DNA of 64,000 nucleotides from Microbacterium arabinogalactanolyticum (GTDB lineage Bacteria; Actinomycetota; Actinomycetes; Actinomycetales; Microbacteriaceae), in contig NZ_BRZC01000002.1 in the NCBI RefSeq assembly GCF_030268005.1, positions 124,001 to 188,000 of the forward strand, written 5' to 3'. Under the pieces are notes generated by a model. It had not been told where the DNA came from, made no database searches, and saw only the letters and a program-made list of their open reading frames with translations. This document shows positions 4,295-33,792 of the stretch, in pieces; within the stretch, counting starts at the first letter, position 1; each line of letters starts with the position of its first letter. Position numbers and translations under genes: made by a program.

Positions 4295-5359
4295 ATGCCT
4301 GACTCCCTCACCTGGCCCGATCTGCTCACCACGCTGCTCGAGAGGCGCGATCTGAGCGTCTGGGAGTCCACCTGGGCGATGCGTCAGGTCATGCAGGGCA
4401 AGGTCAGTCAGGCGCAGCTCGCCGGATTCCTGGTGGCGCTCCGCGCCAAGGGGGAGACGGTCGACGAGGTCGTGGGCTTCCGCGACGCGATCCTCGAGGC
4501 GGCCGTCCCGCTCCCGGTCTCCTCCGACGTGCTGGACATCGTCGGCACGGGCGGCGACAGGGTCGGCACCGTGAACGTGTCCACGACCGCCGCCGTGATC
4601 ATCGGCGCGACCGGCGTCCCGGTCGTCAAGCACGGCAACCGTGCCGCCAGCTCGTCATCCGGCTCCTCCGACGTGCTCGCCGCGCTCGGACTGAACATCT
4701 CGCTCGACCCGGAGCAGGTCGCCTCCGTGCTCGACCGCACCGGCATCACCTTCGCGTGGGCCGCGGCGTTCCACCCCGGTTTCAAGCACGCCGGCGCGGT
4801 GCGTGCCGAGCTGGCCGTGCCGACCGTCTTCAACGTGCTCGGGCCGCTCTGCAACCCGGCTCGCGCCGAGGCCAACGCGGTGGGCGTCGCCAAGCTCAAC
4901 CTCGTCCCGCTGATCACGGGGGTGTTCCGCACCCGTGGCGCCACCGCGCTCGTGTTCCGCGGCGATGACGGACTGGACGAGCTCACCACCACGGGCCACA
5001 GCAGGATCTGGGAGGTGGCGCGCGGAGACATCCACGAGCACGACCTGGACCCGCGCGATCTCGGCATCCCGCTGGCCGACCTGTCCGACCTGGTCGGCGG
5101 CGCTCCCGAGCACAACGCCCGCATCCTGCGGCGCACGCTCGAGGGCGAGAAGGGCGCGGTGCGCGACATCGTGCTCCTCAACGCGGCCGCGGGCATCGTC
5201 GCGTACGAGCTGTCCCATGACGCGGCGCTCACGCAGCAGCCGATCGTCGAGCGGCTGCGCGACGCGTTCGCCCGCGCCGCCGAGGCCGTCGACGACGGTC
5301 GTGCGGCAGCCAAGCTGGAGACCTGGATCCAGGCCACCCGCGAGACCACGCCCGCCTGA
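4295..5359 (+). CDS. trpD: Anthranilate phosphoribosyltransferase
   Basis: Transfers phosphoribosyl from PRPP to anthranilate, the second committed step of tryptophan synthesis. 354 residues from the ATG at 4295 (MPDSLTWPDL). The PRPP-binding motif GTGGD and the loop KHGNRAASSSSGSSDVL are clear, and length fits the family. It stands apart from other trp genes here, as is common in this lineage. A PHP-domain gene follows 14 bases downstream and is probably co-transcribed. In-frame starts at 4214 and 4283 are less likely because the -10 box would then lie inside the coding region. Confidence 0.96.
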   Translation: MPDSLTWPDLLTTLLERRDLSVWESTWAMRQVMQGKVSQAQLAGFLVALRAKGETVDEVVGFRDAILEAAVPLPVSSDVLDIVGTGGDRVGTVNVSTTAAVIIGATGVPVVKHGNRAASSSSGSSDVLAALGLNISLDPEQVASVLDRTGITFAWAAAFHPGFKHAGAVRAELAVPTVFNVLGPLCNPARAEANAVGVAKLNLVPLITGVFRTRGATALVFRGDDGLDELTTTGHSRIWEVARGDIHEHDLDPRDLGIPLADLSDLVGGAPEHNARILRRTLEGEKGAVRDIVLLNAAAGIVAYELSHDAALTQQPIVERLRDAFARAAEAVDDGRAAAKLETWIQATRETTPA

Positions 5360-5373
5360 CCGGGCGCAGCAGC

Positions 5374-6360
5374 ATGGACGCCGTCGACGCTCTCCTCCAG
5401 ATCGCCACGCTGCTGGAGCGCGAGCGCGCCTCGCGCTACCGGGCGAAGGCGTTCCGTCAGGCCGCGGCGGTGCTGGATTCGCTGCCGGACGACGTGGTGC
5501 ACGATCCCGCCCGGCTGCGGGCGCAGAAGGGCATCGGCGATTCCACCTTCGAGGTGATCCGGCAGGCGCAGGAGGGACGCGTTCCCGACTACCTCTCGGA
5601 GCTCCGCGGCGAGGTCGAGCCCGAGCAGGTCTCCGCACTGCGATCCCGGCTGCGGGGCGACCTGCACAGTCACACCGACTGGTCGGACGGCACCACGCCC
5701 ATCGAGACCATGGTCGCCGCCGCCCGGGCGCTCGGTCACGAGTACCTCGCGATCACCGACCACTCGCCGCGTCTGCGCGTGGCCAGGGGGCTGTCCGCCG
5801 AGCGGCTGCGTGAGCAGATCCCGCTGGTGCGCGCTCAGTCGGGCGAGGGGCTGACGGTGCTCGCGGGCATAGAGGTGGACATCCTCGAGGACGGCGGCCT
5901 GGATCAGTCACCGACGCTGCTGGACGAGCTGGACGTCGTCGTCGCGTCCGTGCACTCCAAGCTGAGGATGGATGCCGCGCCCATGACGCGGCGGATGATC
6001 GCCGCGGTGTCCGATCCGCGAGTGAACGTGCTCGGCCACTGCACGGGGCGCCTGGTGCAGGGCGAGCGCGGCACCAGGCCGGCATCCGACTTCGACGCAC
6101 GGACCGTGTTCGCGGCGTGCGCGGAGAACGGCGTGGCGGTGGAGATCAACTCCCGCCCGGAACGGCAGGACCCGCCGGACGAGCTGATCGCGATCGCGCT
6201 GCAGGAGGGATGCCTGTTCTCGATCGACTCGGACGCGCACGCACCCGGTCAGCTCTCGCTGCTCGACCACGGCGCCGCGCGGGCGGAATCCGCGGGCGTT
6301 CCCGCCGAGCGCATCGTCACGACCTGGGGACTGGAGCGGCTGCGCGCCTGGACCGGTTGA
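5374..6360 (+). CDS. PHP-domain protein with N-terminal PolX-like helix-hairpin-helix region
   Basis: 328 residues. The N-terminus (about 1-85, with QKGIGDSTFEVI) looks like the helix-hairpin-helix end of bacterial DNA polymerase X. The rest is a PHP phosphoesterase with metal-binding signatures DLHSHTDWSDG, TDHS, EVDIL, VHSK, GHCTGR and SIDSDAHAPGQ. No nucleotidyltransferase (Pol beta) domain is present, so it is a PolX relative reduced to its HhH and PHP parts. It probably hydrolyses a phosphoester on DNA or a small metabolite; the substrate is unknown. It lies directly downstream of trpD and is convergent with the exonuclease gene. Confidence 0.8.
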   Translation: MDAVDALLQIATLLERERASRYRAKAFRQAAAVLDSLPDDVVHDPARLRAQKGIGDSTFEVIRQAQEGRVPDYLSELRGEVEPEQVSALRSRLRGDLHSHTDWSDGTTPIETMVAAARALGHEYLAITDHSPRLRVARGLSAERLREQIPLVRAQSGEGLTVLAGIEVDILEDGGLDQSPTLLDELDVVVASVHSKLRMDAAPMTRRMIAAVSDPRVNVLGHCTGRLVQGERGTRPASDFDARTVFAACAENGVAVEINSRPERQDPPDELIAIALQEGCLFSIDSDAHAPGQLSLLDHGAARAESAGVPAERIVTTWGLERLRAWTG

Positions 6361-6367
6361 CGCCGGC

Positions 6368-7285
6368 TCAGCGCGCCAGTGCCGCCAGAGCGCGGGTCAT
6401 CGAGGTCCCGAGGTTCCACTTCTCGGCCAGGGCGGTCGCGGCATCCGCCTGCGAAGGATCCAGCGCCCGCAGCGGTGTGCCGGGTGCGACCACGTCGAGA
6501 TCGCGCACGACCTCCACGACGGTCGGCGCGACGTCGAGATAGTCGGATGCCGCGGCGAAGCGCGCCGACGCGGCCGCGCTGAGCAGGCCGCCCTCGGCGG
6601 CCTCGCGGATGCCGCGCAGATCGCCGTGCGCCTGAAGCAGCGTGGCGGCGGACTTCTCGCCCACGCCCTTCACGCCCGGCAGCCCGTCGGAGGCGTCGCC
6701 GCGCATCGTGGCGAAGTCCGCGTACTGCGAGGGGAGGACCCCGTACTTGGCGACGACGACGGCATCCGTCACGATCTCGAGGTTGCTCATCCCCCTGGCC
6801 GTGTAGATCACCCGCACGTCACGGGCGTCGTCGACGAGCTGGAACAGGTCGCGGTCGCCGGTGACGATGTCCACGGGGATGGCCGACCGGGTCGCGAGCG
6901 TCCCGATCACGTCGTCGGCCTCGTGCTCGGCCGCACCGATGATCGGGACGCCGATCGCCGCGAGCGTCTCGCGGATCAGCGGAACCTGCTGCAGCAGGGG
7001 ATCGGGCACCTCCTCGACGTCGGGGCCGGCCGGCACCTCCTCGACCACGCGGTGCGCCTTGTAGCTCGGGATGAGGTCGACGCGCCACTGCGGCCGCCAG
7101 TCGTCGTCCCAGCACGCGATCACCTGAGCGGGCTCGTAGAGGGTCACCAGCTTGGCGACGATGTCGAGCAGGCCGCGCACGGCGTTCACCGATGTCCCGT
7201 CGGGCGCCTTCACCTTGTCGGGCACGCCGTAGAAGGCGCGGAAGTAGAGACTGGCGGTGTCGAGCAGCATGAGGCGATCGGTCAC
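6368..7285 (-). CDS. 5'-3' exonuclease (FEN family, PolA N-domain-like)
   Basis: 305 residues starting at a GTG (MTDRLMLLDTASLYFRAFYG). It matches the free-standing homologue of the DNA polymerase I 5' nuclease domain. Visible are the metal-binding acidic motifs EHEADDVIG and VTGDRDLFQL, the arch region with YKAHR, and the helix-hairpin-helix GVKGVGEKSA. It probably processes flaps or RNA primers. The GTG is fixed by a -10 TAGGCT six bases upstream. It converges on the PHP gene with only seven bases between the stop codons. Confidence 0.9.
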   Translation of the reverse strand: MTDRLMLLDTASLYFRAFYGVPDKVKAPDGTSVNAVRGLLDIVAKLVTLYEPAQVIACWDDDWRPQWRVDLIPSYKAHRVVEEVPAGPDVEEVPDPLLQQVPLIRETLAAIGVPIIGAAEHEADDVIGTLATRSAIPVDIVTGDRDLFQLVDDARDVRVIYTARGMSNLEIVTDAVVVAKYGVLPSQYADFATMRGDASDGLPGVKGVGEKSAATLLQAHGDLRGIREAAEGGLLSAAASARFAAASDYLDVAPTVVEVVRDLDVVAPGTPLRALDPSQADAATALAEKWNLGTSMTRALAALAR

Positions 7286-7297
7286 GGCATCAGCCTA
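7286..7297 (-). promoter_or_regulatory. Leaderless promoter of the 5'-3' exonuclease (-10 TAGGCT)
   Basis: On the minus strand TAGGCT, six bases (GATGCC), then the GTG start. The spacing puts +1 at the start codon. Confidence 0.55.
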
Positions 7298-7479
7298 GAG
7301 GCTGGCTCCGACAGGGGGAGCGGAAGAGGATCCGCATCTGATAACCTGGAGTGTCACTCGTGGCGAGCATCCGCGTGCCCTCGTGACATCGCAATCCCAC
7401 ATCCATTCGCTTCGGCACCCTTTAGGCATGTCGCCCGTGCCCGAGGCCTGACTCTCCATTCACAAGGACAACCCACTAC

Positions 7480-8937
7480 ATGACTAGCGCAACGACCGCC
7501 CCGGCCACCAAGCAGGTCGCGATCAACGACATCGGATCTGCCGAGGACTTCCTGGCCGCGGTCGAGAAGACCCTGAAGTTCTTCAACGACGGCGACATCA
7601 TCGAGGGCACGATCGTCAAGATCGACCGCGATGAGGTTCTGCTCGACGTCGGCTACAAGACCGAGGGTGTCATCCCCTCGCGTGAGCTCTCCATCAAGCA
7701 CGACGTCGACCCCAACGAGGTCGTCGCCGTCGGCGACAAGGTCGAGGCCCTCGTTCTCCAGAAGGAGGACAAGGAAGGCCGTCTGATCCTCTCCAAGAAG
7801 CGTGCGCAGTACGAGCGCGCCTGGGGCGATGTCGAGAAGATCAAGGAGAACGACGGCGTCGTCACCGGCACCGTCATCGAGGTCGTCAAGGGCGGCCTCA
7901 TCGTCGACATCGGACTGCGCGGCTTCCTGCCGGCGTCGCTGATCGAGCTGCGTCGCGTCCGCGACCTCACCCCGTACCTCGGCCAGGAGCTCGAGGCGAA
8001 GATTCTCGAGCTCGACAAGAACCGCAACAACGTGGTTCTGAGCCGTCGCGCGCTGCTGGAGCAGACGCAGTCGGAGTCGCGCACCACGTTCCTGAACAAC
8101 CTGCACAAGGGTCAGGTCCGCAAGGGTGTCGTGTCCTCGATCGTCAACTTCGGTGCGTTCGTCGACCTGGGCGGCGTGGACGGCCTCGTGCACGTCTCCG
8201 AGCTGTCCTGGAAGCACATCGAGCACGCCTCCGAGGTCGTCGAGGTGGGCCAGGAGGTCACCGTCGAGATCCTCGAGGTGGACCTGGACCGCGAGCGCGT
8301 CTCTCTGTCGCTGAAGGCGACCCAGGAGGACCCGTGGCAGGTCTTCGCCCGCACCCACGCGATCGGTCAGATCGCACCGGGCAAGGTCACCAAGCTCGTC
8401 CCGTTCGGCGCCTTCGTGCGCGTCGCGGACGGCATCGAGGGCCTCGTGCACATCTCCGAGCTCTCCAGCAAGCACGTCGAGCTGGCTGAGCAGGTCGTGT
8501 CGGTGGGCGAAGAGGTCTTCGTCAAGGTCATCGACATCGACCTCGAGCGTCGCCGCATCTCGCTGTCGCTGAAGCAGGCCAACGAGTCCGTCGACCCGCA
8601 CGGCACCGAGTTCGACCCGGCGCTGTACGGCATGCTCGCCGAGTACGACGAGAACGGCGAGTACAAGTACCCGGAGGGCTTCGACGCCGAGACCGGTGCC
8701 TGGAAGGACGGCTTCGACGCTCAGCGCGAGGCTTGGGAGCAGGAGTACGCGGCTGCCCAGGCTCGCTGGGAGGCGCACAAGGCTCAGGTCCTCAAGGCCG
8801 CCGAGGCCGAGGCCGCCGCAGGCGACGACTTCGGTGCGGCTCAGTCGTTCTCGAGCGACTCCGCCGGTGCCGGCACCCTCGCCGACGACGAGGCTCTCGC
8901 GGCTCTGCGCGAGAAGCTCTCGGGCGGCAACGCGTAA
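7480..8937 (+). CDS. rpsA: 30S ribosomal protein S1
   Basis: 485 residues with four S1 RNA-binding repeats: about 37-105 (GDIIEGTIVKI), 124-192 (NDGVVTGTVIEV), 209-277 (KGQVRKGVVSSIVNFGAFVD) and 294-364 (GKVTKLVPFGAFV). The C-terminal tail is acidic and Ala/Glu-rich (EYDENGEYKYPEGFDAETG and on), as in Actinobacteria. It binds mRNA at the 30S subunit. AAGGA lies 11 bases upstream of the ATG after a leader of more than 100 bases. Codon use is strongly biased to C/G-ending codons, as expected for a highly expressed gene. A strong hairpin terminator follows. Confidence 0.97.
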   Translation: MTSATTAPATKQVAINDIGSAEDFLAAVEKTLKFFNDGDIIEGTIVKIDRDEVLLDVGYKTEGVIPSRELSIKHDVDPNEVVAVGDKVEALVLQKEDKEGRLILSKKRAQYERAWGDVEKIKENDGVVTGTVIEVVKGGLIVDIGLRGFLPASLIELRRVRDLTPYLGQELEAKILELDKNRNNVVLSRRALLEQTQSESRTTFLNNLHKGQVRKGVVSSIVNFGAFVDLGGVDGLVHVSELSWKHIEHASEVVEVGQEVTVEILEVDLDRERVSLSLKATQEDPWQVFARTHAIGQIAPGKVTKLVPFGAFVRVADGIEGLVHISELSSKHVELAEQVVSVGEEVFVKVIDIDLERRRISLSLKQANESVDPHGTEFDPALYGMLAEYDENGEYKYPEGFDAETGAWKDGFDAQREAWEQEYAAAQARWEAHKAQVLKAAEAEAAAGDDFGAAQSFSSDSAGAGTLADDEALAALREKLSGGNA

Positions 8938-30815: not shown

Positions 30816-31322
30816 TCAGCTGCAGGTGCTGCCGAGGCCGAGGAGGATCACGTTGAGCGTGAAGGTCCTGGGAGGCGCGTACCAGGTCGTGTTCGGGTAG
30901 CCGGTCTGGATGCTGATGCCGTACGTTCCGCCGAGAAGATCGGTGAGGTTCAGCAGCCCGAGCAGCTTCGCGGTGTCGTACGTGGCGGCGTAGGAGTACA
31001 CGCCGCCCGTCTGACCCGTCAGGGTGATCTGGCTGGTGTCGCGCGCGGTGGCGGAGTTCTTGGTGATGTCCACGCGCTGATCAGCCAGCGGCAGCGTCGA
31101 CGACCAGGCGAGGTCGACCTTCTGCAGTCCGACCACGAGGGCGCTCGTGGGTTTGCAGGTCGCCCCCGTCGCCGTGGTGGGGGTGGAGACCGCGGTGACG
31201 GTTGTGTTCGTCACCGCGCCGGCCGTCCAGGCGGCCTCCGTCGTGCGGAGACCGGGCAGCAGCACGCCCGTCAGGCAGAGAAGCCCGAGCCCGACCGCAG
31301 CGGCACGCGCACGCCGTGTCAT
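30816..31322 (-). CDS. Exported protein with SipW-cognate-like signal
   Basis: 168 residues. The N-terminus is MTRRARAAAVGLGLLC, then a hydrophobic stretch and TTEAAWTAGAVTNTTVTA, where the AAWT motif after the h-region matches SipW-cognate signal peptides of the neighbouring genes. The mature part is Thr-rich with two cysteines (ATCKPTS and the final STCS) that could pair. Last gene of the minus-strand export locus, coupled to the signal peptidase gene by ATGA. Function unknown; possibly a fibre or matrix subunit. Confidence 0.75.
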   Translation of the reverse strand: MTRRARAAAVGLGLLCLTGVLLPGLRTTEAAWTAGAVTNTTVTAVSTPTTATGATCKPTSALVVGLQKVDLAWSSTLPLADQRVDITKNSATARDTSQITLTGQTGGVYSYAATYDTAKLLGLLNLTDLLGGTYGISIQTGYPNTTWYAPPRTFTLNVILLGLGSTCS

Positions 31323-32518
31323 CGCTCTCGCCTCCGCTGCCTGGCGATCAGTGCGACGCCCAGGCCGACGAGCACGGCCGCCGGTGCGGCGAACAGCGCG
31401 GGTGACGGACCCCCGGTCGCGGGCAGGACCGTCGTTCCGACGGTCTGCTCCACGCTGGTCTGCTCGGCCGCGGCGCGCAGGATGAGCGTCGCGGCGCCCG
31501 AGGGGTCACCGCCACCGGTGACGGAGATGCGCAGGTGCACGACGCTCGGGGTCGCCTGCCGGAGGAGCGGCTTCTCGGGGCTGTCGAGCGTCAGTTGCGC
31601 GGCGGCGCTGAGGGTCGTCGCCGTGCCGGGGCATCCGGACCGCTCCCACCGGGTCGTGCACGACTGCACGATCGTGGACAGCTGCACGCCGTGGCCCTCA
31701 CCGCGCAGGGTGACGGTCAGCTCACCGTCCGCAGGTGCGGACGCGGCGTCGATGTCGAGGTCCCAGTCGTAAGGGCGCACCGCGTCGAGGACGTGGGTAC
31801 CACCGCCGTTCGAGGTGATCGAGATCAGCTCCGCCGCGCCGGCGGGCGGGGCCGACGTGAGGGACGGCAGCGCGACGAGCATCCCGATCGCGACGCAGGA
31901 GGCGACGTGCTGACCCAGGCGACGCTCGCGACGCGACGCGAACTCGGGGGAGCGCAGGGCGTCGTCCTCGGCGCCGAGGGGGTCGTCCTCGGCATCCGCG
32001 GGCGCCGGTCTCCGCACGCGTGGCCAGAAGGCCCAGGTGACCAGCAGCGCGGCGCCGACGGTGATGGTCCCGAGCACCCAGGGGCTGCCGAACCAGACGA
32101 TGACGTAGGCGAGTCCCGGCAGCGAGCCGCGCACGATCCTGGCCTCCGAGATCGTGTACGGCGCGGGGTCGGCGCTCTGGTTCGCGTCGCCTTTCATCGT
32201 GATCACGCGCTGCGTCGAGGTGGGACCGGGGGAGACGCCGGTGATCCGATGCGTGATCGGCAGCTCGCCTGCACGGTCGACGGTCGTCACGTCGCCGACG
32301 GCGAGATCGGATGCCGGGACCCTCTGCACGAGCGCGACCGAGCCGGCCGGGATGGTCGGTGACATCGATCCGGTCTTGAACATGATCAGCGAGTAGCCGC
32401 CGGTGAACGCGAGGATCGTCAGCACGACGCAGGCGACCCCGCCGACGGCGGCGAGCGTGAGCAGCGTCTCGCGGAGCGCGCGGCCCACGCGACCGGCGAT
32501 CCGGACGGCTGCGTTCAT
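31319..32518 (-). CDS. SipW-type signal peptidase I fused to an LPxTG-anchored ectodomain
   Basis: 399 residues. N-terminal helix (about 20-42), then the signal peptidase core: nucleophile Ser in KTGSMSPTIP, ITHRITGV with the His of ER/SipW-type enzymes instead of Lys, and GDANQSADP. A second helix lies near 135-165. After an acidic linker a third hydrophobic segment (VASCVAIGMLVALPSL) resembles a signal sequence, followed by about 145 extracellular residues with a Cys pair and the sorting signal LPATGG, a helix and RQRRRER. Ordinary SipW is about 190 residues, so the second half is an extra domain. It may process the three neighbouring proteins. No sortase is in the window. Confidence 0.85.
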   Translation of the reverse strand: MNAAVRIAGRVGRALRETLLTLAAVGGVACVVLTILAFTGGYSLIMFKTGSMSPTIPAGSVALVQRVPASDLAVGDVTTVDRAGELPITHRITGVSPGPTSTQRVITMKGDANQSADPAPYTISEARIVRGSLPGLAYVIVWFGSPWVLGTITVGAALLVTWAFWPRVRRPAPADAEDDPLGAEDDALRSPEFASRRERRLGQHVASCVAIGMLVALPSLTSAPPAGAAELISITSNGGGTHVLDAVRPYDWDLDIDAASAPADGELTVTLRGEGHGVQLSTIVQSCTTRWERSGCPGTATTLSAAAQLTLDSPEKPLLRQATPSVVHLRISVTGGGDPSGAATLILRAAAEQTSVEQTVGTTVLPATGGPSPALFAAPAAVLVGLGVALIARQRRRER

Positions 32519-32522
32519 CGGG

Positions 32523-33188
32523 TCACCCGGTCGTCCCGGTGAACGTCCACGTCGGCGCGACTGTCCCGCCCTGGGCTGCCGTCGTGGCTGTGGAGGGCAG
32601 GGTGAGCACGACGCAGTAGGTCACGGTGTTCGCGCCACCGCCCTGCAGAGCCGCAGGCGGCAGCTGAGTGCCGGTGGGCACCGTCGTCAGCGGCGAGGGC
32701 TGCATCGTCGCGCTGGTGGTCGTCGGCGTGCATGCCGACGGCTGGGCCACCTGCACGACGACGGCTGTGAGCGCGTTCATCAGGGCCTGATCGGCAGCAC
32801 CCGGCGCGCTCGCGCTCACGTTCGTGAGCGTGACGGTGCCGCCCAGCGATCCGGACGTCTGGACCTGGATCCACGCCGCCCTGCTGACACCCGGGTACAG
32901 GCCGGTGGCGTTGAGCTGCAGCGTGGCCGGGTTCCCCGCGCCGTGCGACGCGAACGGGTCGGTCTGGACCGTCCTGGACGAGACCGAGAACGTCCCCGCC
33001 TGGACGGTCGACGAGGCGAGCTCCTGGTCCGTCCAGGCGGCGAGTGTCATCGTGAAGCCGACGCCCAGCACCAGCCCGCCGGCGAGAACGGCGCGGATGC
33101 GCCGCGATCGCAGATGTCGCGCCCGGGCACGGTTCTCACGGCGGGTGGCGCGGAGGGCGGCTACTGGGATACTGCTTCCCACTTCCAT
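32523..33188 (-). CDS. SipW-cognate exported protein (221 aa)
   Basis: The signal region SRRIRAVLAGGLVLGVGF and then TMTLAAWTDQELASSTVQAG is the SipW-cognate type: long hydrophobic core, AAWTDxE. The mature domain is Thr/Ser/Val-rich, TasA-like in composition, with two cysteines. The start is uncertain: ATG 33188 overlaps the upstream gene by 28 bases, and a GTG at 33182 is also possible. It lies four bases before the signal peptidase gene. Probably secreted and cleaved by it. Confidence 0.78.
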   Translation of the reverse strand: MEVGSSIPVAALRATRRENRARARHLRSRRIRAVLAGGLVLGVGFTMTLAAWTDQELASSTVQAGTFSVSSRTVQTDPFASHGAGNPATLQLNATGLYPGVSRAAWIQVQTSGSLGGTVTLTNVSASAPGAADQALMNALTAVVVQVAQPSACTPTTTSATMQPSPLTTVPTGTQLPPAALQGGGANTVTYCVVLTLPSTATTAAQGGTVAPTWTFTGTTG

Positions 33189-33715
33189 GTCACCGTTCCC
33201 GTGTGGCCCTGCACGAGGTCCTCGGTCGCAGAGACCTTCAGGCAGAGGTTCACCGTCTGGCCGGCGGTGATCGAGGCGGGGATCGCCGTGCCGGCGTTGA
33301 ACGCCGTCGCGTCGCAGCCGAAGGCGGTGGTGGCCACGGCGTCGAAGACCAGGTCGGCGGCGACGAGCGTTCCGCCCGACGCGATCGCGACGGTCTGCGT
33401 GAGATCGGCGGCCGAGCTCCCGGTGAGCTTCACGGCGTACGGGGCGTACACCGTGTCGCCGGGGGACAGGTTGGTCGGATTCACGACGAAGGTCAGGTCG
33501 GCGGCGCCCGCCTCGGATGCATGGTCGGCGAACGCGGTGCCGTCCGTGGATCCCTGGAACACGAACGAGCCCGCGGTGAAGGTGCTCTTCGCGAACTCGG
33601 AGTCGTTCCAGGCGGCCAGGGTGACCGCCGTGCCCACGCCGAGCACGAGGCCACCGGCGAGCACGGCGTAGATCCTGCGCCGGCGCAGGCCCTTCGCGGC
33701 AGATGAAGTGTCCAT
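33161..33715 (-). CDS. SipW-cognate exported protein (184 aa)
   Basis: MDTSSAAKGLRRRRIYAVLA, then a hydrophobic core and TLAAWNDSEFAKSTFTAGSF, the SipW-cognate signal; the first half is nearly identical in pattern to the next gene (AVLAGGLVLGVG in both), so the two arose by duplication. The mature part has two cysteines (FGCDATAF and VNLCLKV) and a final TGTVTWKWEAVSQ. GAAGGG lies about seven bases before the ATG. First gene of the locus; its promoter carries a tandem octamer. Such proteins form fibres in Bacillus biofilms; the role here is inferred. Confidence 0.82.
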   Translation of the reverse strand: MDTSSAAKGLRRRRIYAVLAGGLVLGVGTAVTLAAWNDSEFAKSTFTAGSFVFQGSTDGTAFADHASEAGAADLTFVVNPTNLSPGDTVYAPYAVKLTGSSAADLTQTVAIASGGTLVAADLVFDAVATTAFGCDATAFNAGTAIPASITAGQTVNLCLKVSATEDLVQGHTGTVTWKWEAVSQ

Positions 33716-33765
33716 GAGTTTCCCTTCTCATCAGGACCACGTGTGGGGGAGCACGCTTTCGCGTC

Positions 33766-33792
33766 AGCGTAGTGACATATCGGAATATCGGA
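33766..33792 (-). promoter_or_regulatory. Promoter of the SipW locus with tandem repeat ATATCGGA x2
   Basis: On the minus strand -10 TACGCT (33766-33771) with TTTCCG 17 bases upstream. The spacer holds two head-to-tail copies of TCCGATAT (plus-strand ATATCGGA at 33777-33784 and 33785-33792), with no base between. This position is typical of an activator or repressor that controls the spacer. Confidence 0.45.

What the first reader, a model, noticed from the sequence alone, without database searches (positions are those of the whole stretch)
30816..33792. Four-gene export locus built around a signal peptidase fused to an LPxTG-anchored domain
Seen: three small exported proteins share a SipW-cognate signal (AAWN/AAWT after a long hydrophobic core) and sit with a 399-residue protein that joins an ER/SipW-type peptidase core (GSMSPTIP, ITHR, GDANQSADP) to a signal-like helix, a Cys-containing ectodomain and LPATGG plus an anchor. 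Known: Bacillus SipW processes TasA-type matrix proteins and is about 190 residues. Inference: the peptidase becomes its own wall-anchored substrate or scaffold, so secretion and surface assembly of a matrix fibre are tied in one protein. A sortase must act in trans.
Basis: partly seen in the sequence, partly recalled or inferred. Interest (0 to 1): 0.65.

Follow-up and report, generated by a model that had tools for sequence, protein, structure and literature searches.

The report
Export peptidase joined to wall anchor
Soil bacteria of the Microbacterium group carry a small operon that probably exports and anchors a surface fibre, in which the export enzyme and the wall anchor are made as one protein that is most likely cut in two afterwards; close relatives make them from two overlapping genes.

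Summary
In detail: four minus-strand genes (30816-33715) encode two proteins with SipW-type signals (A, B), a 399-aa protein joining a Ser/His signal peptidase (S) to an ectodomain (E) ending LPATGG, and an AAW-type exported protein (D). The fusion is real but is one state of an unstable arrangement: of 81 loci (window plus 80 relatives) 39 fuse S and E, 17 encode E as its own gene (15 with a 4-bp overlap), 23 lack E and 2 are ambiguous. In Arthrobacter a small length change beside the overlap separates the states. E keeps an ordinary, not SipW-type, signal peptide in both states, so the best reading is a polyprotein: the internal signal is cut, giving a membrane peptidase and a wall anchor. 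Profile comparison makes E a possible remote relative of TasA/camelysin fibre subunits (97% against a small camelysin-like group, beta-rich control 0.2%), and gene A's top fold match is the TasA fibre, both with caveats. This looks like a TasA-type fibre locus whose sortase-anchored base is made 1:1 with its export peptidase. An uncut, self-anchored peptidase is not excluded but less likely. Nothing was tested by experiment.

The parts
33161..33715 (-). Gene A: TasA-like exported protein, 184 aa, SipW-type signal (LAGGLVLGVG..TLAAWNDSEFA)
   Evidence: TIGR04088 35.2 bits; top Foldseek hit TasA fibre 8aur, E 1.5e-5, TM-score 0.40; A-profile hits in all 81 loci
32523..33188 (-). Gene B: second exported protein related to A, 221 aa, SipW-type signal
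   Evidence: TIGR04088 26.2 bits; 45% identical to A over 113 columns, signal included
31319..32518 (-). Gene C: 399-aa fusion, S (signal peptidase) + E (ectodomain) + sorting signal
32018..32485 (-). S: SipW/ER-type signal peptidase domain (aa 12-167); Ser51, His90, Asp111 invariant
   Evidence: TIGR02228 50.2 bits as protein, 52.6 by genome scan, cut-off 51.85; conservation 81 of 81
31835..31933 (-). Internal signal peptide (aa 196-228): RRERR, hydrophobic core, APPAGA; cut predicted after A228
   Evidence: no TIGR04088 match
31430..31834 (-). E: beta-sandwich ectodomain with an invariant Cys pair (aa 229-363)
   Evidence: AlphaFold2 mean pLDDT 92.3; alignment A1; remote similarity to camelysin-like proteins, control
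31322..31426 (-). Sorting signal LPATGG, hydrophobic stretch, RQRRRER tail
   Evidence: sequence; tails of relatives
30816..31322 (-). Gene D: 168-aa AAW-type exported protein of an unnamed family; start overlaps C's stop (ATGA, 31319-31322)

Best explanation
A SipW/TasA-type fibre locus. The peptidase part of C (S) cuts the SipW-type signals of A, B and probably D, releasing TasA-like fibre subunits. E is a wall-anchored, possibly remotely TasA-like domain that probably holds the fibre to the wall. In this lineage S and E are translated as one chain that is laid out as S (catalytic part outside), a charged cytoplasmic linker, an internal signal peptide, then E (outside). An ordinary signal peptidase probably cuts after A228, leaving S in the membrane and handing E to the class E sortase. 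Fusion fixes a 1:1 output of enzyme and anchor at one export site. Shown by sequence: the gene set, the fused and separate states, the internal signal and sorting tail, the adjacency of S and E. Inferred: the topology, the cut, wall attachment, fibre formation and E's role as base.
For: Fused and separate states alternate: 13 changes for three labels on the S tree, at least 6 for 'fused' forced by well-supported branches; 11 for three labels and 5 for fused against separate with doubtful rows dropped. G207 carries one fused and one separate copy. In Arthrobacter the fused L053 differs in length just before the ATGA overlap that L050 and L060 keep. [AV]xA follows the core in 39 of 39 fused and 16 of 17 separate copies; after S's own two membrane segments it is 7 and 13 of 39 in fused. 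Against residue shuffles (38 strings) [AV]xA is 38 against a mean of 32.6 and P..AxA 30 against 13.3, none of 1000 as high for either. TIGR04088 matches 70 of 70 A-type rows and 0 of 56 E signals. A's top Foldseek hit is the TasA fibre, second an archaeal bundling pilus. hhalign: E against camelysin-like A3 97.1%, A against A3 89.5%, E against A 60%; beta-rich control D at most 0.4%; the four A3 proteins pass Pfam PF12389. Two ordinary signal peptidases in the genome pass TIGR02227.
Against: No cleavage, secretion, wall-linkage or fibre data exist here. The [AV]xA excess over shuffles is modest because these stretches are Ala-rich, and in the separate-gene loci the same pattern also follows S's second membrane segment in 12 of 17; two fused copies (L021, L027) lack a clear site by eye. 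The A-type set was gathered with a profile that included the signal, so its 70 of 70 is partly circular. A3 was found with the E profile and has only four sequences; its Pfam camelysin match covers residues 15-117 at most, the signal and first half, while E aligns to its residues 75-200, so the two overlap only in part. No E row hits Pfam camelysin. E's fold search is not specific: first GH123 domains, best VIA Z 9.0 to an unrelated lipoprotein, and TasA is not among the 50 rows of either list. A's TasA match has TM-score 0.40 and VIA Z 6.7 (rank 25), on a model of mean pLDDT 74. Class E sortases prefer LAXTG (PMC5148588, passages), whereas the window has LPATG; 8 of 39 fused copies depart from L[P/A]xTG.
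Confidence: 0.55

Rival explanations
1. The fusion stays uncut: an active peptidase covalently tied to a wall-anchored ectodomain, so fibre subunits mature right at their wall anchor.
For: The chain is translated as one, and 28 of 39 fused genes lack a possible internal start near the signal; the sampled Leucobacter (12 of 12), Plantibacter (4 of 4) and Mycetocola loci (4 of 4, two of them the same locus on two contigs) are all fused.
Against: An ordinary AxA-type site is kept in fused forms; separate forms serve related genomes; sortase transfer of the C-terminus to the wall would tether an integral membrane enzyme.
Confidence: 0.18
2. E is mainly a membrane-held TapA-like initiator or chaperone for the fibre; sortase anchoring is secondary or lost in places.
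For: TapA is an Ig-fold partner whose gene overlaps sipW (PMC10151520, passages); the sorting motif departs from L[P/A]xTG in 8 of 39 fused copies while the hydrophobic tail persists.
Against: L[P/A]xTG is kept in 31 of 39 fused and 17 of 17 separate copies (read); E has no SipW-type signal, unlike TapA, which SipW processes (PMC9674648, passages).
Confidence: 0.17
3. The exported proteins do not form a fibre but are independent surface proteins sharing a dedicated peptidase.
For: No fibre data; weak fold statistics for A; D has no named family.
Against: TasA fibre is the only Foldseek hit for A at E 0.001 or below; A-profile hits occur at all 81 loci.
Confidence: 0.17

Closest known systems
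Bacillus subtilis tapA-sipW-tasA operon
   Same: Dedicated ER-type signal peptidase, SipW-type signals, TasA-like subunits, a beta-sandwich partner gene overlapping the peptidase gene
   Different: Partner E has an ordinary signal and a sortase signal and is fused to the peptidase here; two TasA-like genes and an extra D gene; NCBIfam Bacillus SipW and TasA models are far below cut-off (38.1 of 190; 11.3 of 450)
Bacillus cereus sipW-calY1-bc_1280-calY2 operon
   Same: Two camelysin/TasA-type subunits with one SipW (PMC10151520, passages)
   Different: No wall-anchored partner or fusion is mentioned in the passages read; Pfam camelysin is not reached by A (15.5 of 22.5 bits)
Clostridium perfringens sipW-bsaABCRSD operon
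   Same: SipW needed for export and polymerisation of a matrix protein (PMC7395162, passages)
   Different: A sortase gene lies nearby but was dispensable, and no LPXTG motif was predicted in BsaA; no fusion in the passages read
Sortase-anchored base pilins (e.g. EbpB)
   Same: Beta-sandwich, C-terminal sorting signal, presumed anchoring role; EbpB is in the VIA list at Z 8.1
   Different: Fold match not specific; the one sortase found is class E, not a class C pilin sortase

Membership tests
ER/SipW-type signal peptidase (S26B, TIGR02228) | Ser and His catalytic residues with the conserved Asp | tested here: met
   S51, H90, D111 in 81 of 81; their catalytic roles are recalled from SipW, not tested
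ER/SipW-type signal peptidase (S26B, TIGR02228) | Score above TIGR02228 cut-off 51.85 | tested here: inconclusive
   50.2 bits as protein, 52.6 in the genome frame scan
Bacillus SipW equivalog (NF046067) | Score above cut-off 190 | tested here: not met
   38.1 bits
SipW-dependent exported proteins (TIGR04088) | SipW-type signal above 19 bits, genes A and B | tested here: met
   A 35.2, B 26.2; D no match
SipW-dependent exported proteins (TIGR04088) | E's internal or N-terminal signal is of this type | tested here: not met
   0 of 56 at E 0.1
TasA / camelysin (PF12389, NF046066) | Curated profile cut-off, gene A | tested here: not met
   15.5 of 22.5 and 11.3 of 450 bits; 0 of 70 A rows at E 0.01 in Pfam
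TasA / camelysin (PF12389, NF046066) | TasA-like fold, gene A | tested here: inconclusive
   Foldseek top hit 8aur E 1.5e-5 but TM-score 0.40; VIA Z 6.7 among many; model mean pLDDT 74
TasA / camelysin (PF12389, NF046066) | Donor-strand exchange fibre | not testable with these tools
   needs cryo-EM or mutants
TasA / camelysin (PF12389, NF046066) | E is a remote member (profile similarity) | tested here: inconclusive
   hhalign 97.1% to A3, whose four members pass PF12389, control D 0.2%; but A3 was found with the E profile, the Pfam match lies mostly outside the stretch aligned to E, no E row hits Pfam camelysin, and TasA is not in the fold rows shown
Sortase-anchored wall protein | LPxTG-type motif, hydrophobic stretch, positive tail | tested here: met
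   window LPATGG + RQRRRER; L[P/A]xTG in 31 of 39 fused and 17 of 17 separate (read)
Sortase-anchored wall protein | TIGR01167 cut-off 15.9 | tested here: not met
   11.8 bits
Sortase-anchored wall protein | A sortase that acts on it | not testable with these tools
   one class E sortase found; 143 of 149 family genomes have a sortase, so co-occurrence says nothing
TapA | SipW-type signal, N-terminal donor strand, V-set Ig fold | not tested
   only the signal was tested (not met for E)

The most novel reading that the evidence does not exclude
Actinobacteria build a TasA-type fibre whose wall-bound base is itself a TasA-superfamily subunit that gave up the SipW-type signal for a sortase signal, and in many lineages the base is born on the same chain as the peptidase that matures the fibre subunits. 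Every wall anchor then arrives with its own export enzyme at the same site, so export, nucleation and anchoring are coupled one to one.
Probability: 0.32. Interest if true: 0.68.

Novelty: new variant of a known kind. Interest (0 to 1): 0.5.

Why it matters
It gives a candidate answer to how a TasA-type fibre could be attached to the cell wall in bacteria that use a sortase-anchored partner, and it points to three protein families (the body of A, E, and D) that gave no convincing Pfam match. The repeated switch between fused and overlapping genes, with the internal signal kept, is a natural experiment on whether enzyme and anchor need to be linked, and one antibody would test it.

Tried and rejected
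Frameshift or annotation artefact: rejected, as the fused frame recurs in an 88-89% identical relative and in several genera.

Hidden internal start giving separate E from the fused gene: rejected for the window; 28 of 39 fused copies have no candidate, and 3 of 39 have one with a Shine-Dalgarno-like match (L027, L030, L053).

Sortase co-occurrence as evidence: uninformative, 143 of 149 family genomes have one.

Sequence search of solved structures with the A2, A1 and A3 profiles: no relevant hit. E's fold search gave only general beta-sandwiches.

Conserved genomic location: rejected outside the closest group; neighbours gap/pgk/tpiA/secG/tig/clpP were found near 5 of 80 relatives, within the stretches held.

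The automatic tally of sorting motifs picked upstream chance matches; the counts used here were read by eye from the tails. L031 runs off its contig just after the motif.

Literature: SipW+LPXTG (12 papers), SipW+Actinobacteria+TasA (12), TasA+donor strand+signal peptidase (5), signal peptidase+LPXTG+fusion+Microbacterium (0), SipW-like+signal peptidase+Actinomycet (0), camelysin+signal peptidase+LPXTG (0), class E sortase+LAXTG (5), TasA+Actinobacteria+camelysin (1), signal peptidase+polyprotein+internal signal peptide+bacteria (1, a virus review). None of the titles and abstract starts listed, nor the passages read in five papers, describes such a fusion; the other papers were not opened, and most subscription journals are not held.

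Full report
What is there. On the minus strand, 33715 down to 30816, lie four genes. A (184 aa) and B (221 aa) carry SipW-type signals (TIGR04088) and are 45% identical over 113 columns, signal included. C (399 aa) joins a peptidase (S, aa 12-167) to an ectodomain (E, aa 229-363) with LPATGG and a membrane tail. D (168 aa) has an AAW signal and no convincing family match. Gene borders overlap or nearly touch. The window lies in G000:C2:124001-188000 and its nearest named relatives are Microbacterium.

The peptidase. S scores 50.2 bits as a protein and 52.6 in the genome scan against the TIGR02228 cut-off of 51.85. Ser51, His90 and Asp111 are unchanged in all 81 loci. It is not a Bacillus SipW by the NCBIfam equivalog (38.1 of 190 bits). 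The genome has a second such peptidase next to a TasA-like gene, without E, and two ordinary signal peptidases.

Fused or separate. The search for related loci kept 80 relatives. Profile searches on these and the window give 39 loci with S and E in one frame (one of them, L018, also fused to D), 17 with E as its own gene, 2 ambiguous frameshifts (L061, L063), and 23 without E, two of them at contig ends (L044, L079) and one (L081) with S fused to D. In 15 of the 17 separate cases an ATG for E lies in a 4-bp overlap with the S stop. An S-domain tree needs 13 changes for the three states, and well-supported branches force at least 6 for 'fused'. Without the four doubtful rows it needs 11, and 5 for fused against separate alone. 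In Arthrobacter, L053 (fused) differs from L050 and L060 (overlapping genes) by a small length change just before the overlap and keeps the ATG in frame. Among 198 Microbacterium genomes the rows shown give 14 fused loci (the window's included), one more with a stop inside (G286), and 23 loci with an adjacent separate E frame in 22 genomes; G207 has one of each. The list was cut, so these are lower bounds, and single frameshifts cannot be told from separate genes in such rows.

E belongs with S. In a family survey 32 of 149 genomes have E. I fetched the surroundings of the 31 others than the window and both G207 loci. S is beside E in 30 of 31, the miss being the weakest match, and in both G207 loci; 13 of the 33 are fused. 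A class-wide draw found E in 20 of 296 genomes; adjacency was not checked there.

The internal signal. In fused chains a mostly positively charged stretch and a hydrophobic core precede E. [AV]xA follows in 39 of 39 fused and 16 of 17 separate forms. After S's own two membrane segments the same pattern follows in 7 and 13 of 39 fused loci and in 1 and 12 of 17 separate ones, so the second control is high in the latter. Because the stretches are Ala-rich, shuffles reach 32.6 of 38 on average for [AV]xA; the stricter P..AxA is 30 of 38 against 13.3. The signal is not SipW-type: TIGR04088 matches 0 of 56 but 70 of 70 A-type rows, the latter gathered with a profile that included the signal. 28 of 39 fused genes have no in-frame start near it, so E must come from the long chain there. 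A cleavage site kept on a chain with no separate start is best explained by cleavage after translation. This is inference.

What E is. E has two invariant Cys and an invariant Trp in 56 rows. Its model is a confident beta-sandwich (mean pLDDT 92.3), but fold searches give no specific match and do not show TasA in the rows listed. In four distant loci (L110, L111, L114, L116) the E profile also found proteins with a TasA-like signal that pass the Pfam camelysin cut-off. In three of these loci (L110, L111, L114) the peptidase stands between such a protein and an E ending in LPVTG or LAVTG. Profile comparison gives 97.1% for E against this group (A3), 92.4% against the LPVTG/LAVTG-ended ones (A4), 89.5% for A against A3, and 60% for E against A, while the control family D gives at most 0.4%. 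Caveats: the pairwise E-values are not database-scaled, A3 holds four sequences found with the E profile, and its Pfam match (residues 15-117 at most) lies mostly before the stretch aligned to E (75-200); no E row itself hits Pfam camelysin. A's model is weaker (mean pLDDT 74.3, residues 16-48 disordered); its top and only Foldseek hit at E 0.001 or better is the TasA fibre (TM-score 0.40), then an archaeal bundling pilus; by VIA the TasA match is Z 6.7 at rank 25.

Sorting. L[P/A]xTG is present in 31 of 39 fused (22 LP, 9 LA) and 17 of 17 separate copies (4 LP, 13 LA), read by eye; the eight others are LSQTG (3), LSKTG, IPVTG, IASTG, VAYTG and LAVSG. The one sortase found is class E, a class described as preferring LAXTG (PMC5148588, passages), so the LP form is a mild mismatch.

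How it most likely works. S cuts the SipW-type signals of A and B and probably D; A and B assemble as a TasA-like fibre; E is cut from S at the internal signal by an ordinary peptidase, is attached to the wall by the class E sortase, and anchors the fibre. Donor-strand assembly of TasA and the role of TapA are from PMC9674648 and PMC10151520 (passages); the C. perfringens parallel is from PMC7395162 (passages). Every step in this organism is inferred from sequence.

Verdict. The likely novelty is not a self-anchored peptidase but an enzyme-anchor polyprotein in a TasA-type locus, with an anchor that may be a converted fibre subunit.

Noticed in passing
L086 (G000:C7:1148000-1160000), 5168-8449: A second SipW-type locus in the same genome: a TasA-like protein (NF046066 28.1 bits, below cut-off), a peptidase without E, and a 619-aa protein with repeats.
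   Followed up: partly
L018:4912-6687: One frame joins peptidase, E with LPATGG, and D with its own AAW signal: a triple fusion.
   Followed up: partly
L081:5752-7056: Peptidase fused directly to a D-type domain, no E.
   Followed up: no
L110, L111, L114: Gene order E (LPVTG or LAVTG end), divergent peptidase, camelysin-like E relative: both flanks of the peptidase carry E-type domains.
   Followed up: partly
L061:5857-7193: In Arthrobacter sp. Hiyo8 the peptidase frame runs into E's signal and then a frameshift breaks E; decay or assembly error.
   Followed up: partly
L046:2-3194: Two further divergent peptidase frames with TasA-like neighbours upstream of the main locus.
   Followed up: no
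L068 and L069: Peptidases from records labelled Williamsia muralis and Kitasatospora arboriphila are nearly identical; one record may be contaminated or mislabelled.
   Followed up: no
L023 and L024: The same locus occurs on two contigs of one Mycetocola lacteus assembly; probably a duplicated assembly.
   Followed up: no
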